Positions 21,539 to 28,345 of a DNA stretch of 33,212 bases are shown here, piece after piece (position 1 is the first letter of the stretch; every line of letters begins with the position of its first letter). The stretch comes from Conexibacter sp. (GTDB lineage Bacteria; Actinomycetota; Thermoleophilia; Solirubrobacterales; Solirubrobacteraceae): the NCBI GenBank assembly GCA_025964325.1, contig JAOPZA010000043.1, positions 1-33,212 of the forward strand, written 5' to 3'. The notes under the pieces were generated by a model. The model was not told where the DNA came from. It ran no database searches and saw only the letters and a list, made by a program, of their open reading frames with translations. The translations under genes were made by a program, and so were the position numbers.

Positions 21539-24217
21539 TCAGTCGGCCGCGGGATCGGCGCCAGCCGATTCCACCACGAGCGCACGGACGGCGGCGGCCG
21601 ACTCGGCCGCCAGCGCGCGTTCGGCCAGCTCGCCGGCGGCGGTCGTGTCGAGGGCGCGCACCGCAGCCTTGACGGCCGGGATCGAGGGCGCGGCGACGCT
21701 CAGCTCGCGCACGCCGAGGCCGGTCAGCAGCGGGATCGCGGCCGGGTCGGCGCCGAGCTCGCCGCAGACGCCGACCCAGCGGCCATGCGCGTCGGCAGCG
21801 CGGCAGACCTCGCCGATCAGCCGCAGGACGGCGGGGTGCAGGCCGTCTGCGAGCGCGGCGACGTGCTCGTTGCCGCGCTCGGCGGCGAGCACGTACTGCG
21901 TCAGGTCGTTCGTGCCGAGCGAGAGGAAGTCGACGGCGGCCGCGAGGTGGTCGGCGATCAACGCGGCCGCGGGAACCTCGACCATCACGCCGACCTCGAA
22001 GCCCTCGCGTGGCGTCGCGCCGCTCTGCTCGAGCGCGCCGTGGAGCAGCGCGCGGGCGGCGCGCAGCTCCTCGACGGTGGCGACCATCGGGAACATCAGC
22101 TTGACGTTCGGCAGCTCCGCGGCGACGCGGACGATCGCGCGCAGTTGCGCCGCGAGCAGCTCGGGCCGGGCGAGGCCGAGCCGCAGCCCGCGCACGCCGA
22201 GGAACGGGTTCTGCTCCGGCGGCATGCCGAGGTAGGGGAGCGGCTTGTCGGCGCCGGCGTCGAGCGTGCGGATCACGAGCGGCCGGCCGGCGAGCGCCTC
22301 GCCGGCGGCGCGGTAGATCGCGACCTGCTCGTCCTCGCTCGGCGCGCTGTCGCGGTCGAGGAACGCGAACTCCGTGCGCATCAGCCCGACGCCGTCGGCG
22401 CCCGCCGCGACCGCTTCGGCGGCCTCGCGCGCGCCGCCGATGTTGGCCGCGACCTCGATCCGCACCCGATCCCTCGTGAGCGCGGGCTCGTGCGCGACCG
22501 CGCGCGTCGCTGCGGCAGCGCGCGCCGCCTCGTCGCGACGCTCGCGGTAGGTCTCGCGCGTCGCGTCCGGCGGGTCGGGCAGCAGCAGGCCGGCGGCGCC
22601 GTCGAGGATCGCGGGCGTGCCGTCGGCGAGCGCGAGCAGGGCGTCGCCGAGGCCGACGACAGCGGGCACGCCGAGCGCTCGCGCGAGGATCGCGCCGTGC
22701 GAGGTCGGGCCTCCGCCGGCGGTCGCGATCCCGCGGACGGTGGCCGGATCGAGCCCCGCCGCGTCGAGCGGCGTGAGGTCGCGGGCGAGCAGGATGAAGG
22801 CGGAATCGGCTGGCGCCGATTCCGGGCGAGATCGGCTGGCGCCGATCTCGCGGCGTGCGGCGGGGGCAAGCGCCGCGCCGGACGCGGGTGGCGCAGCCGA
22901 TTCCGCCAATTCCGCAAGGACCCGGCGCGCGACGTCGTCGAGGTCGTCGGCGCGGGCGCGCTGGTAGTCGTCGGCGAGCGCGCGGTAGCGGCCCACCATG
23001 TCAGCGGTCGCGTCGGCCCAGCCGCGGCCGGCGCTGCGGCCGGCGTCGATCGCCGCGCGCGCAGGATCGAGCAGGGCTGGGTCGTCGAGCGCCAGCGCGA
23101 GCGCGTCGAGGATCTCCGCCTCCTCGCCGCCGACCCGCGCGGCCAGCCGCTCGTGCCGTGCCGCGATCTCGTCGCGCACGATTCGGCGCGCCCGTCCGAG
23201 CGCCGCCCACTCCTCGTCGGGCGAGCCGGACGGCTGCTCGGCGATCGGCGGCGCGCCGACGCCGGCCGCGCCGCCCCCGATCCGCCGCAGCGGCGCGATC
23301 GCGATGCCGGGAGAGGACGGAATCCCCCGCAACCCCCCCGCCGGAGCATCGACGCCAGCCGAGTCCGCCGATCCTTGCCGCGCGCGCAAGATCGGCGCCA
23401 GCCGATCTTGCCCGGAATCGGCGCCAGCCGATTCCGCCCGTTCCGTCGCGATCTGACGCAACCGCACGATCGCCTCCGCGGCCTCCGGTCCACGGGCGCG
23501 CACGATCAGCTCGTGGCCCTCCCGCACGCCGAGCGTCGCGATCGCGTTGAGCGAGGTGGCGCTGGCCGGCGCAGAGCCGGTCGTCGCGTTCTCGACCTCC
23601 ACGACGGCGTCGAGCTCGGAGGCGGCGCGCACGAAGCGGGCGGCTGGGCGAGCGTGGAGTCCCTGCGCGACGGTCACGACGAAGCGCGACTGCTGCCACG
23701 AGGCGTCACCCGGTCGATCAGCGTCGCGGGGGGGACCAACAGACCCCGACTCGTCGGCCCGGGCTCCAGTCTCCGCCGGCCGGCCACCGCCGAGGTGCGC
23801 GAGCTTCGGCCCCAACCCGCCGCGCGCCTCCGCAGCGACCTCGTCGAGCGATTGCCCGGCCTGCGCGGCGACGGCCGCCGCGACCGCGCCCTCGACGAGC
23901 GGCGCGGCCGCCAGTCGGACGCGGTCCGCGATCGCGGGGTCGAGCAGGTCGAGCGCGGTCTCGGCGCTCAGCACCGCGCTGCCGAGGTCCATCAGCACCA
24001 GCACCCCGGCGGGCTCGTCCGCGGCCGGCCCGAGCGCTGCCTCGATCGCCTCCATCACGCGCACCGCATCGGTGCCGAGGCCACGCGGCGCTCCTGCGGC
24101 CGGCGGGTCGATCCCCCCGGCCGCTTCGATCCGCACGTCGCCGGCCATCTCGCGCGCCAGCTCGACGACGCCCTCCGCGAGGCGGGCGCTGTGCGAGACG
24201 ACGACGATCCCTACCAC
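21539..24217 (-). CDS. dhaM: DhaM-type multiphosphoryl transfer protein: EIIA(Man)-HPr-Enzyme I
   Basis: An 892-residue fusion carrying a whole PTS phosphorelay for dihydroxyacetone kinase. Residues 1-135 are an EIIA(Man)-fold DhaM domain with H9 (VVVSHSARLAEGV). HPr covers about 177-258 with H188 (QGLHARPAARF). Enzyme I covers about 296-880: start GIPSSPGIAIAP, phosphorylated H507 (GGGPTSHGAILARALGVPAV), and the PEP-binding barrel with FPMVATVEELR, SLGTNDLTQYVLAAERGN and VGVCGELGADP. E. coli DhaM has only a truncated Enzyme I, whereas here it is full length. Phosphate should pass PEP-H507-H188-H9 to the DhaL-bound ADP. The start is GTG at 24217, 22 bases after glpK. The junctions at about 261-290 and 435-472 and the C-terminus (882-889) are encoded by palindromic repeats. 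Confidence 0.95.
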   Translation of the reverse strand: MVGIVVVSHSARLAEGVVELAREMAGDVRIEAAGGIDPPAAGAPRGLGTDAVRVMEAIEAALGPAADEPAGVLVLMDLGSAVLSAETALDLLDPAIADRVRLAAAPLVEGAVAAAVAAQAGQSLDEVAAEARGGLGPKLAHLGGGRPAETGARADESGSVGPPRDADRPGDASWQQSRFVVTVAQGLHARPAARFVRAASELDAVVEVENATTGSAPASATSLNAIATLGVREGHELIVRARGPEAAEAIVRLRQIATERAESAGADSGQDRLAPILRARQGSADSAGVDAPAGGLRGIPSSPGIAIAPLRRIGGGAAGVGAPPIAEQPSGSPDEEWAALGRARRIVRDEIAARHERLAARVGGEEAEILDALALALDDPALLDPARAAIDAGRSAGRGWADATADMVGRYRALADDYQRARADDLDDVARRVLAELAESAAPPASGAALAPAARREIGASRSRPESAPADSAFILLARDLTPLDAAGLDPATVRGIATAGGGPTSHGAILARALGVPAVVGLGDALLALADGTPAILDGAAGLLLPDPPDATRETYRERRDEAARAAAATRAVAHEPALTRDRVRIEVAANIGGAREAAEAVAAGADGVGLMRTEFAFLDRDSAPSEDEQVAIYRAAGEALAGRPLVIRTLDAGADKPLPYLGMPPEQNPFLGVRGLRLGLARPELLAAQLRAIVRVAAELPNVKLMFPMVATVEELRAARALLHGALEQSGATPREGFEVGVMVEVPAAALIADHLAAAVDFLSLGTNDLTQYVLAAERGNEHVAALADGLHPAVLRLIGEVCRAADAHGRWVGVCGELGADPAAIPLLTGLGVRELSVAAPSIPAVKAAVRALDTTAAGELAERALAAESAAAVRALVVESAGADPAAD
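21551..21572. repeat. In-gene palindromic element, copy 1 (dhaM C-terminus)
   Basis: Arms GGGATCGGC and GCCGATTCC around GCCA, with one G-T wobble. It encodes the final VESAGADP of the fusion protein, just before the stop. The same core occurs at 22801, 22827, 23386 and 23413. Confidence 0.7.
22801..22824. repeat. In-gene palindromic element, copy 2
   Basis: A perfect 10-bp stem, CGGAATCGGC and GCCGATTCCG around TGGC (plus strand). The coding strand reads it as PESAPADS. It is two bases from copy 3. Confidence 0.85.
22827..22850. repeat. In-gene palindromic element, copy 3
   Basis: A perfect 10-bp stem, CGAGATCGGC and GCCGATCTCG around TGGC (plus strand). The coding strand reads it as REIGASRS, a different frame from copy 2. 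It lies between the helical and phosphohistidine parts of Enzyme I. Confidence 0.85.
22890..22905. repeat. Decayed half-copy of the palindromic element
   Basis: GGCGCAGCCGATTCCG equals the right side of the element (GGCGCCAGCCGATTCCG) with one base lost. It lies 40 bases from copy 3. Confidence 0.4.
23348..23366. repeat. Decayed copy of the palindromic element
   Basis: ATCGACGCCAGCCGAGTCC matches the element ATCGGCGCCAGCCGATTCC at 17 of 19 positions. The coding strand reads it as ADSAGVD in the HPr-Enzyme I linker. Confidence 0.5.
23386..23411. repeat. In-gene palindromic element, copy 4
   Basis: A perfect 11-bp stem, GCAAGATCGGC and GCCGATCTTGC around GCCA (plus strand), so its orientation is opposite to copies 2 and 3. 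The coding strand reads it as QDRLAPIL, a third frame. Confidence 0.85.
23413..23436. repeat. In-gene palindromic element, copy 5
   Basis: A perfect 10-bp stem, CGGAATCGGC and GCCGATTCCG around GCCA (plus strand). The coding strand reads it as ESAGADS in the HPr-Enzyme I linker. It is one base from copy 4. Confidence 0.85.
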
Positions 24218-24239
24218 GCGAGTGGCGCCCTGCCGTCGG

Positions 24240-25742
24240 TCACTCCGGCTTGGCCCACCCGAACGTCCGCTGGACCGCTTCCTTCCAGCGGCCGTAGCGC
24301 TGCTCGACCTCGGCCGAGTCCATCTGCGGCTCCCAGCGCTTGTCCTCGCCCCAGTTGCGCGTCACGTCCTCGGCCGACTGCCACACGCCACAGGCGATGC
24401 CGGCCGCGTAGGCGGCGCCGAGCGCCGTCGTCTCCGACACCTTCGGACGGATCGTCGGCACGCCGAGCACGTCGGCCTGGAACTGCATCAGCAGCTCGTT
24501 GCCGACCATGCCGCCGTCGACTCTCAGCTCTCTGAACGGCGCCTCGGCCGCCTCGTTGGCGGCGTCGACGACCTCGCGGCTCTGCCATGCGGTCGACTCC
24601 AGCACCGCGCGCGCGATGTGGCCTCTGTTCGTGTACGCGGTCAGACCGATCAGCAGGCCGCGCGCGTCGTCGCGCCAGTAGGGCGCGAACAGGCCGGAGA
24701 ACGCGGGCACGAAGTAGACGTCGCCGGTGTCCCGCACCGTCTTCGCGAGGTCCTCGCTCTCGGGTGCGGTTCTGATGATCCCGAGCTGGTCGCGCAGCCA
24801 CTGGACGCCCGCGCCGGTGACGGCGATCGCGCCCTCGAGCGCGTAGACCGCGTCCTGGTCGCCGATCTTGTAGGCGACCGTGGTCAGCAGCTTCTCCGAC
24901 GGCACCGGGTCGTTGCCGGTGTTGACGAGCAGGAACGAGCCCGTCCCGTACGTGTTCTTGGCGGTGCCGGGCTCGAAGCACGCCTGCCCGAAGAGGGCGG
25001 CCTGCTGATCGCCGAACGCGCCGGCGATCGGCACGTCCTCGAGCACCGTGCGCCGCGTCTCGCCGTAGACCTCCGACGAGGAGCGGATCTGCGGCAGCAT
25101 CGCCTTCGGCACCCCGATCACGTCGAGCGCCTCGTCGGACCAGTCGAGCGTTCTCAGGTCCATCAGCATCGTGCGCGAGGCATTCGTGACGTCGGTCACG
25201 TGGACGCCGCCGTCCGTGCCGCCGGTCAGGTTCCAGATGACGTAGGTGTCCATCGTGCCGAAGAGGATGTCGCCGGCCTCGGCGCGCTCGCGCACGCCGT
25301 CGACGTTGTCGAGGATCCACCGTGCCTTCGGCCCCGAGAAGTACGTCGACAGCGGCAGGCCGCAGATCGCGCGCAGCCGATCGGGTCCGCCGTCTCTGCT
25401 CAGCTCGGCGACGAGCGGCGCGGTGCGCGTGTCCTGCCACACGATCGCGTTGTAGACGGCCTCGCCGGTGTTCTTGTCCCACAGCACGGTCGTCTCGCGC
25501 TGGTTCGTGATGCCGATCGCCTTGATGTCCCGCGAGCGCAGCCCGCCTCTCGCGAGCGCCTCCGCGATCACCTCCCGGATGCGCAGGCGGATCTCGTCCG
25601 GGTTGTGCTCGACCCACCCCGGTCTGGGGTGGATCTGCTCGTGCTCGCGCTGCCCGACCTGCACGATGTTGCCGTCGGTGTCGAAGATGATGAAGCGCGA
25701 GCTCGACGTTCCTTGGTCGATCGCGCCGACGTAGTCAGCCAT
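24240..25742 (-). CDS. glpK: Glycerol kinase
   Basis: A 500-residue FGGY-family kinase of standard length that makes glycerol-3-phosphate from glycerol and ATP. The start is [18 protein letters not shown] (ATP phosphate loop). Family motifs include [36 protein letters not shown] (substrate), [33 protein letters not shown], and [20 protein letters not shown] near the C-terminus. The stretch before VPIAG, where many Firmicutes glycerol kinases carry the histidine phosphorylated by HPr, reads RRTVLED and has no histidine. Thus it should not be activated by the HPr encoded next door. The ATG at 25742 has a clear ribosome site (GAGGAGAA). It lies 9 bases after dhaL and 22 before the PTS fusion. 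Arg codon AGA is frequent (at least 8 cases), although GC is very high. Confidence 0.97.
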
Positions 25743-25751
25743 GGGTTCTCC

Positions 25752-26393
25752 TCATTCGTCGCGGGCGCCCCAGGTCTCCGCCGCGATGCGCAGCAGCAAC
25801 GCGGAGGAGGTGGCGCCCGGGTCCTGGTGTCCGGCGCTGCGCTCGCCGAGATAGCTTGCGCGACCCTTGCGCGCGACGAGCGGGGTGGTCGCTTCCGCGC
25901 CCGTCTCGGCCGCCGCGGCGGAGCCGGCGAGCGCGGCCCCGAACGCCGCCCCGTTGCCGGCCGCCGCCTCGAGCGTCTCGGCCGCCGGGGTCAGCGCGTC
26001 GACCATCGTCTTGTCGCCGAGCTCGGCCTTGCCGCGCCGCACGACGCCGGCGACCGCCTGCGTGAGCGCCGCCGACCACGTCGCCGCGTCGACCTCGGCC
26101 GCGTCCCCGAGACCGCCGGCGAGCCCGATGAAGAAGGAGCCGTAGAGCGGCCCGGCGGCGCCCCCGACGGTCGAGAGCAGCGTCATCCCGACGGTTCTGA
26201 GCGCGGCGGCCGGCGTCTCGGGCGCGGCGGCGGCGAGTCTCTCCGCCGCCGCCGTGAAGCCGCGTGCCATGTTGGCGCCGTGGTCGCCGTCGCCGATGTC
26301 GGCGTCGAGGCGGTTGAGACGGTCGCGCTCGTCCTCGAGCGCAGCGGCGCTCAGCCGCACCCAGTCGACCACCTCGGGTGTGCCGATCGCCAT
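25752..26393 (-). CDS. dhaL: Dihydroxyacetone kinase ADP-binding subunit
   Basis: A 213-residue all-helical DhaL subunit. The Mg-ADP site is clear in LNRLDADIGDGDHGANMARG (D30, D35, D37). Further motifs are MTLLSTVGGAAGPLYGSFFI, GKAELGDKTMVDALTPAAET, and RKGRASYLGERSAGHQDPGA at the C-terminus. In PTS-type DHA kinases the nucleotide stays bound as a cofactor. It is rephosphorylated by DhaM, and DhaL then transfers phosphate to dihydroxyacetone on DhaK. The full set K, L, M is present here. The ATG at 26393 follows dhaK after 9 bases. Confidence 0.96.
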   Translation of the reverse strand: MAIGTPEVVDWVRLSAAALEDERDRLNRLDADIGDGDHGANMARGFTAAAERLAAAAPETPAAALRTVGMTLLSTVGGAAGPLYGSFFIGLAGGLGDAAEVDAATWSAALTQAVAGVVRRGKAELGDKTMVDALTPAAETLEAAAGNGAAFGAALAGSAAAAETGAEATTPLVARKGRASYLGERSAGHQDPGATSSALLLRIAAETWGARDE

Positions 26394-26402
26394 GGCCTGA
26401 CG

Positions 26403-27400
<998 letters not shown>

Positions 27401-27404
<4 letters not shown>

Positions 27405-28345
27405 TCGAAGTCCTCCACCGTGCGCCCGCGCGCCTCGACGCCCGGTCTCGGCGGCTCGCCACGCGCTCTCAGCGCGTCGCCGACGAAGAAGTTGTAGACC
27501 CAACCGCCGATCAACCCGCCCACGATGGGTGCGACGATCGGGATCCACATGTAGCTGTTGATGTTGCCGTAGTCGCCTGGGACGGCGATCTTCCCGTAGC
27601 CCTCGATCCATGCCCAGAGGCGCGGGCCGAGGTCACGCGCGGGGTTGATCGCGTAGCCGCTGTTGCCGCCGAACGAGAGGCCGATCGCCATCACGATGAA
27701 GCCGACGGCGATGGGCGCGAGGTTCGCTCTCGGCGGCTGGTTCATCGTGTCGATCAGCGCGAAGATGATCATCACGAGGAGCGCCGTGCCGACGACCTCG
27801 TCGATCAGCGGTCCCGGCCAGGAGCCGTAGTATCTGGCTGGGAAGGTCGCGAAGATGCTGAACGTCGGTACGGAGTTGGACGCTCCGCGGACGATGCCTC
27901 TGGCGCGTTCGAAGCTGTCGATCGCGGCGTTGTAGTTGCCGTAGATGACGGCCGCGGCGACGAACGCTCCGGCGACCTGCGCAACGATGTAGTGCGGCAC
28001 CTTGCGCCACTCGAACCCGCGGTATGTCGCGAGCGCGAGCGTGACGGCCGGATTCAGGTGGGCGCCGGTGAGGCCGCCGGCGACGTAGACGCCGAAGGTG
28101 ACGCCGAACCCCCACCCGAAGATGATGATGAGCCAGTCGGCCTGGGTCACGAACGGCGCAGGGCCGCGGCCGGACTGGTTGAGGGCGGCCACCGTCATCG
28201 CGACGGAGCCGACTCCGAACATGATGAGGACGAACGTGCCCATGAACTCGCCGAGCACTTCGCCCCAGACTGTGCGCCGCCAGGCGGCGGTGGGACCAAA
28301 CCGTGCGTTCCACCCGCCCCTGGCCGCTGGCTGAGTGGCTGACAT
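27401..28345 (-). CDS. glpF: Glycerol facilitator (aquaglyceroporin)
   Basis: A 314-residue MIP-family channel with six helices and both pore motifs: first NPA in [19 protein letters not shown], second in [17 protein letters not shown]. The Asp after the second N-P-A-R (NPARD-x-G-P-R) marks glycerol channels over water channels. Longer loops and a 30-residue cytoplasmic tail explain the size above 280. It lets glycerol and probably dihydroxyacetone diffuse into the cell. ATG at 28345 is preferred. An upstream TTG at 28378 would start within the operator. There is no Shine-Dalgarno, and minus-strand TATCTG lies 6 bases upstream, which fits leaderless translation. It is the first gene of the glpF-dhaK-dhaL-glpK-dhaM unit. 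Confidence 0.95.

What the first reader, a model, noticed from the sequence alone, without database searches (positions are those of the whole stretch)
22801..23436. A family of in-frame palindromes colonises the dhaM-PTS gene, read in all three frames and both orientations
Seen directly: four perfect hairpin sequences (22801-22824, 22827-22850, 23386-23411, 23413-23436; stems 10-11 bp, loop TGGC or GCCA), one near-perfect copy at the 3' end of the gene (21551-21572) and two decayed copies (23348-23366, 22890-22905). All share the core ATCGGC-(TGGC/GCCA)-GCCGAT. They come as close pairs, and the pair at 22.8 kb is inverted relative to the pair at 23.4 kb. The coding strand translates them as ESAPADS, EIGASRS, QDRLAPIL and ESAGADS, so the similarity lies in the DNA, not in the protein. 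The core has no stop in any frame. The copies fall in the HPr-Enzyme I linker (about 261-290), between two parts of Enzyme I (about 435-472) and at the extreme C-terminus, places that tolerate extra residues. Rickettsia palindromic elements are the known precedent for such in-gene insertions. I know of no described family of this kind in actinobacteria.
Basis: partly seen in the sequence, partly recalled or inferred. Interest (0 to 1): 0.82.

Follow-up and report, generated by a model that had tools for sequence, protein, structure and literature searches.

The report
REP-like double hairpins in Conexibacter
A soil actinobacterium of the genus Conexibacter carries about 70 scattered clusters of a 52-base DNA element made of two perfect hairpins, sitting behind genes or inside protein linkers, an offshoot of the known bacterial REP repeats whose matching arms seem to change together.

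Summary
The four perfect hairpins are at the stated coordinates and belong to a genome-wide family: the 16-mer core occurs 37 times in the 4.34-Mb genome (reversed control 0).

The unit is not a single palindrome. It is a 51-52-base double hairpin, head to tail: hp1 (11-bp stem), a 1-2 nt linker, hp2 (10-bp stem), both with loop GCCA. Outer stems differ between copies but stay Watson-Crick paired: 50 both-side changes against 2 one-side changes. G·U and A·C mismatches are equally rare, so there is no sign of single-strand RNA selection. The two DhaM copies differ by exactly one compensated base pair.

Copies are most numerous behind genes (23 clusters convergent, 23 co-directional, 0 divergent). 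Another 22 lie inside genes, mostly between domains or at termini, including ligA, dnaE, pyrG, rplJ and a lipoyl E2. In genes the ESAPADS/ESAGADS frames are preferred, which qualifies the 'all frames' claim. Copy number is 85 matches here against 0-9 in congeners, including C. woesei. Empty sites were found.

It works like REP elements, including their known intragenic insertions, and Rickettsia palindromic elements. But no GTAG/CGTC tag or Y1 (RAYT) transposase was found, and dimers are direct. New variant of a known kind; the mobilising enzyme is unidentified.

The parts
21539..24217 (-). dhaM: DhaM-type PTS protein (EIIA-man, HPr, Enzyme I domains), 892 aa, host gene of the copies
22801..22851 (-). 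double hairpin A: hp1 22826-22851, 1-nt linker, hp2 22801-22824; codes EIGASRSRPESAPADS between Enzyme I N-domain and mobile domain
   Evidence: CM hit 74 bits, E 5e-13; folds at -41.4 kcal/mol, z -7.5
23386..23436 (+). double hairpin B, inverted relative to A: hp1 23386-23411, linker 23412, hp2 23413-23436; codes ESAGADSGQDRLAPIL in the HPr-Enzyme I linker
   Evidence: CM hit 72.9 bits, E 9e-13; -39.6 kcal/mol, z -9.0; differs from A by one compensated pair
21549..21573 (+). fused single hairpin (hp1 left arm + core + hp2 right arm), extreme C-terminus of DhaM
   Evidence: (30 bits)
23348..23369 (+). decayed hp2 copy (ATCGACGCCAGCCGAGTCCGCC)
22890..22905 (+). decayed fragment: loop and right arm of hp2 only (GGCGCAGCCGATTCCG)

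Best explanation
This is a REP-like, non-autonomous palindromic element of Conexibacter. The moving unit is a 51-52-nt head-to-tail double hairpin with a fixed core (CGGC-GCCA-GCCG) in each hairpin. Copies insert at many sites. Those that survive lie mainly just behind stop codons and between convergent genes, or in disordered linkers, where the stop-free sequence is read in frames giving hydrophilic Ser/Ala/Glu/Asp/Pro peptides. The unit expanded in this lineage, and two copies sit in opposite orientation in dhaM. Shown: family, anatomy, placement, lineage-specific copy number, empty sites, frame bias, no detectable Y1 transposase. Inferred: spread by transposition or copy-paste with a helper that is not a RAYT (unknown or lost), and perfect stems kept by template-switch repair, in which one arm is recopied from the other during replication, turning a one-sided mutation into a compensated pair. 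Many 3' copies may also act as RNA or DNA hairpins at gene ends, as REPs do.
For: Copy number: CM hits 85 in this genome, 9, 3, 2, 2, 0, 0 in six congeners; other family genomes 0-7, none found in the rest of the order. Placement: 23 convergent, 23 co-directional, 0 divergent, 22 in genes, where convergent space is 11% of intergenic (P 1e-10) and divergent is 27% (P 5e-7). In C. woesei and relatives many elements start or end within 0-5 nt of a stop codon. Empty sites: an in-frame insertion in a G029 DUF3866 gene absent here, and the pyrG insertion here absent from G029; DhaM orthologues without it. Unit of movement: the two DhaM copies match over the element. Covariation: 98% of cells paired, 11 of 21 pairs with both-side changes, sliding controls far lower; 572 WC, 19 GU, 19 AC, 26 other over 106 hairpins; copies differing at two arm positions do so within one pair 247 of 324 times; pairing equally good mid-gene (88%) and elsewhere (90.5%). 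Direct dimers 30 to 1. Template switching is a described route to compensatory stem changes (PMC8794818).
Against: No helper enzyme was found. Target-site duplications could not be resolved because relatives are too diverged (about 70% protein identity in DhaM). Some sites are shared between species and even genera (C11 with C. woesei 4917007; rplJ tail with G025), so part of the family is old and vertically kept, which suits a functional hairpin as well as a mobile one. The template-switch step rests on a mutation pattern only; alignment A1 was selected for intact copies, though the broader count agrees. Pairwise counts are not phylogenetically independent. Gene calls are home-made.
Confidence: 0.68

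Rival explanations
1. Functional 3'-end hairpins: the elements are primarily transcription terminators or mRNA-stabilising structures that are inherited vertically and kept by selection on RNA structure; in-gene copies are strays.
For: Strong 3'-end and convergent placement, often abutting stop codons; some sites shared across species and genera with diverged but still paired stems; very stable fold.
Against: No T-tract after hp2 (T frequency 0-0.23 per position over the first eight positions). No orientation bias relative to the gene (co-directional 13 same, 10 opposite). GU and AC mismatches equally frequent, so no single-strand RNA signature. Mid-gene copies are equally well paired. Copy number jumps from 0-9 to 85 between congeners.
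Confidence: 0.2
2. A classical REP/RAYT system whose transposase was missed (MAG gap or lost recently).
For: Size, palindromy, dimers, clusters, intragenic copies and 3' placement all match REPs (PMC3733652). The MAG is 96.65% complete, so a gene could be missing.
Against: PF01797 finds nothing in this genome, in complete C. woesei (9 copies) or in G139, while it finds hits in other family members and controls. No GTAG tag in flanks or linker of 22 units. [quoted passage not shown]
Confidence: 0.1
3. Protein-level repeats: selection for ESAPADS-like disordered linkers, with the DNA palindrome a by-product.
For: In-gene copies prefer the ESAPADS/ESAGADS frames and orthologue linkers are also repeat-rich.
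Against: Two thirds of clusters are intergenic; other frames are used; stems covary in non-coding copies.
Confidence: 0.02

Closest known systems
REP sequences / BIMEs / REPINs, GTAG- and CGTC-tagged families (PMC3733652, PMC3116915)
   Same: 20-40-nt palindromes, dimers and clusters, 3' of genes and between convergent ORFs, close to stop codons, intragenic copies including DNA replication and repair genes (here ligA, dnaE, a UvrD-like helicase, thyX); CGTC REPs also lack a transposase
   Different: Dimer is strictly head-to-tail (30:1), no GTAG/CGTC tag in flanks or linker, no RAYT, wobble pairs no commoner than A-C mismatches although that paper cites frequent GT pairing, order Solirubrobacterales
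Rickettsia palindromic elements (RPE)
   Same: Palindromes inserted in frame inside genes of unrelated function, at tolerant places
   Different: No sequence relation was tested; here most copies are intergenic and the unit is a double hairpin. RPE-4 and RPE-6 are classed as CGTC REPs in PMC3733652
Template-switch-maintained hairpins (PMC8794818)
   Same: Compensated stem changes without wobble intermediates
   Different: There studied in RNA genes; here in a dispersed bacterial repeat
Double-hairpin elements of fungal mitochondria (from memory, not checked; the search found nothing)
   Same: Two adjacent hairpins as one dispersed unit with stem variation
   Different: Organelle, other sequence; relation is analogy only

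Membership tests
REP-like elements (broad sense) | Short palindrome in many dispersed copies, mainly intergenic, 3' of genes | tested here: met
GTAG/CGTC-tagged REP superfamilies | Unpaired GTAG or CGTC motif at one end | tested here: not met
   0 of 22 units with GTAG or CTAC; CGTC in 3 (5' flank), 2 (3' flank) and 0 (linker) of 22
REP/RAYT system | Y1 (RAYT) transposase gene flanked by the repeats | tested here: not met
   PF01797 absent from G000, C. woesei (G031) and G139
BIME/REPIN | Two palindromes in inverted orientation | tested here: not met
   30 direct, 1 inverted neighbour pair
Rickettsia palindromic elements | In-frame insertion inside protein genes, absent from orthologues | tested here: met
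Rickettsia palindromic elements | Sequence relationship to RPE families | not tested
   no RPE consensus compared; Rfam search gave no match
Intrinsic terminator | GC-rich hairpin followed by T-run | tested here: not met
   flank composition
Mobile element | Presence/absence at orthologous sites | tested here: met
Mobile element | Defined ends and target-site duplication | tested here: inconclusive
   flanking C on both sides in 91% of units; relatives too diverged for exact empty sites

The most novel reading that the evidence does not exclude
A distinct class of bacterial double-hairpin elements that spread without a transposase, by replication-linked fold-back or template switching, and that rewrite their own arms in matched pairs, so that the structure, not the sequence, is what is inherited; the same architecture with other loops may exist in distant actinobacteria (G403 hit).
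Probability: 0.2. Interest if true: 0.75.

Novelty: new variant of a known kind. Interest (0 to 1): 0.5.

Why it matters
It extends REP-like repeats, including many intragenic copies in essential genes, to Solirubrobacterales. It offers a clean natural test of how palindromes stay perfect: dozens of closely related copies in one genome whose differences are mostly compensated pairs. If the template-switch reading is right, covariation in a repeat is not by itself evidence of RNA function.

Tried and rejected
Core by base composition: rejected (0 in reversed controls). RAYT partner: none. Rfam families: none. Phage or plasmid carriage: no match in viral contigs, plasmids or phages. Outer arms derived from the target site rather than the element: rejected, because the two DhaM copies carry the same arms at different sites and the DUF3866 empty site lacks them. 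Structure prediction was not used: it would not bear on the question. Literature searches for double-hairpin elements and for mycobacterial repeat terminators gave nothing usable.

Full report
Observation. The four perfect hairpins are at the stated positions inside an 892-aa DhaM-type protein with EIIA-man, HPr and Enzyme I domains. The pair at 22.8 kb is the inverted repeat of the pair at 23.4 kb. The window is contig C228 of a 4.34-Mb, 251-contig genome. Genome G031 of the same genus is a single contig of 6,359,369 bases, exactly the published length of Conexibacter woesei (PMC3035278), so the window comes from an unnamed Conexibacter species (inference from that length).

Genome-wide family. 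The exact core ATCGGCGCCAGCCGAT occurs 37 times, reversed control 0; TTCGGCGCCAGCCGAA 21 times, control 0. Reading the contexts shows that the unit is a double hairpin in direct orientation: hp1 GCGGGTTCGGC-GCCA-GCCGAACCCGC, linker AA, hp2 TGGAATCGGC-GCCA-GCCGATTCCA, usually with a C on either side. Some loci are tandem arrays in which parts of the unit repeat with spacings of 27, 18 and 45. In DhaM the spacing is 26, one base shorter, which puts the two hairpins in different reading frames and explains the mixed peptides EIGASRS/ESAPADS and ESAGADS/QDRLAPIL. The 21551 copy is a deletion between the two cores (hp1 left arm joined to hp2 right arm).

Covariation. On 21 units, 98.2% of pair cells are standard pairs and 11 of 21 pairs show both-side changes; 50 cells have both sides changed against 2 one-sided. 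Sliding the structure by one column drops pairing to 32-44%. Over 106 hairpins chosen only by core and at least 4 of 6 outer pairs, 572 outer pairs are Watson-Crick, 19 G-U, 19 A-C, 26 other. Equal G-U and A-C means no preference for wobble on one strand, as selection on a transcript would give. Pairs of copies that differ at two of twelve arm positions do so within one base pair in 247 of 324 comparisons, against 58 comparisons with a single one-sided difference (comparisons are not independent). The two DhaM elements differ by exactly one compensated pair in 51 nt; two random substitutions would do so with P about 0.005. Pairing is as good in mid-gene copies (122 of 138) as elsewhere (429 of 474). 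The simplest reading is that one arm is recopied from the other (template switching, PMC8794818). Strong DNA-level structural selection or very recent insertion are alternatives.

Placement. With a simple codon-usage gene caller, 68 clusters fall 23 between convergent genes, 23 between co-directional genes, 22 inside genes and 0 between divergent genes (P values). In co-directional gaps the median distance is about 29 nt from the upstream stop and about 104 nt from the downstream gene (read off). In C. woesei and other relatives elements often touch the stop codons of one or both flanking genes. Orientation relative to genes is neutral. There is no T-run behind hp2, so these are not canonical intrinsic terminators.

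Inside genes. Hosts include CTP synthase, NAD-dependent DNA ligase, DNA polymerase III alpha, RelA/SpoT, a lysyl-tRNA synthetase/lysyltransferase fusion, a lipoyl E2 (two sites), ribosomal protein L10, a UvrD-nuclease fusion, ThyX and a CoA transferase. By hand count, 18 of 22 copies with domain information lie outside Pfam domains. 17 of 26 copies use the two frames that give ESAPADS or ESAGADS, so tolerated frames were retained, although the DNA, not the peptide, defines the family.

Distribution and mobility. The covariance model finds 85 matches here, 9 in C. woesei, 3, 2, 2, 0 and 0 in other congeners, up to 7 in genus g24, 1-2 in a few other genera, none found in other families of the order and one outside this family in a phylum-wide draw of 396 genomes. 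Large searches score fewer candidates, so these counts are lower bounds. DhaM orthologues at 68-72% identity have unrelated Ala/Pro/Gly-rich linkers at the same places. Direct comparisons show a G029 in-frame insertion absent here and an insertion in pyrG here absent from G029. Other sites are shared between species and genera, sometimes with wholly different but still paired stems.

Comparison with the known. In size, clustering, 3' preference and intragenic copies it matches REP elements as described in PMC3733652, including their occurrence in DNA-repair genes. It fails the tests for the tagged superfamilies (no GTAG/CGTC), for RAYT association and for inverted dimers. It works like a REP, and like RPEs inside genes, but is not a member of a named REP superfamily by these tests. 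Verdict: new variant of a known kind.

Noticed in passing
L332 1501-1546 (G403, distant actinobacterial family): A similar direct double hairpin with other loops (GAGTTTC-GTCA-GAAACTC CAATG TCTTCGGC-GCTA-GCCGAAGGCAC), keeping the AATG linker and final C: the architecture may be wider than the GCCA family.
   Followed up: no
L287 2296-3012 and L318: Element in the C-terminal tail of ribosomal protein L10 (rplJ), at the same place in another genus (G025), with identical hp2 but a wholly different, still paired hp1 stem.
   Followed up: partly
L252 2733-2968 (G000:C102): A 47-bp tandem array with single hairpins of the same core (GGAAGATCGGCGCCAGCCGATCTTCC plus CGTCCGTTCGCGTCAGC), a different composite of the core; G027 C113 (L172) carries a similar single-hairpin form.
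   Followed up: no
C. woesei genome (literature): PMC5294841 lists unexplained 'false CRISPRs' in C. woesei DSM 14684 and suspects base composition; arrays of these elements could be an alternative cause.
   Followed up: no
window 21539-28258: Operon order aquaporin - dhaK - dhaL - glycerol kinase - dhaM (Pfam: MIP, Dak1, Dak2, FGGY, EIIA/HPr/EI).
   Followed up: partly
L222 (G026) and L221 (G029) DhaM linkers: The same DhaM linkers in other species are expanded by unrelated protein repeats (APADASAPGD, EGAPPAEPTAATGSGEA), so these sites gain sequence by more than one route.
   Followed up: no
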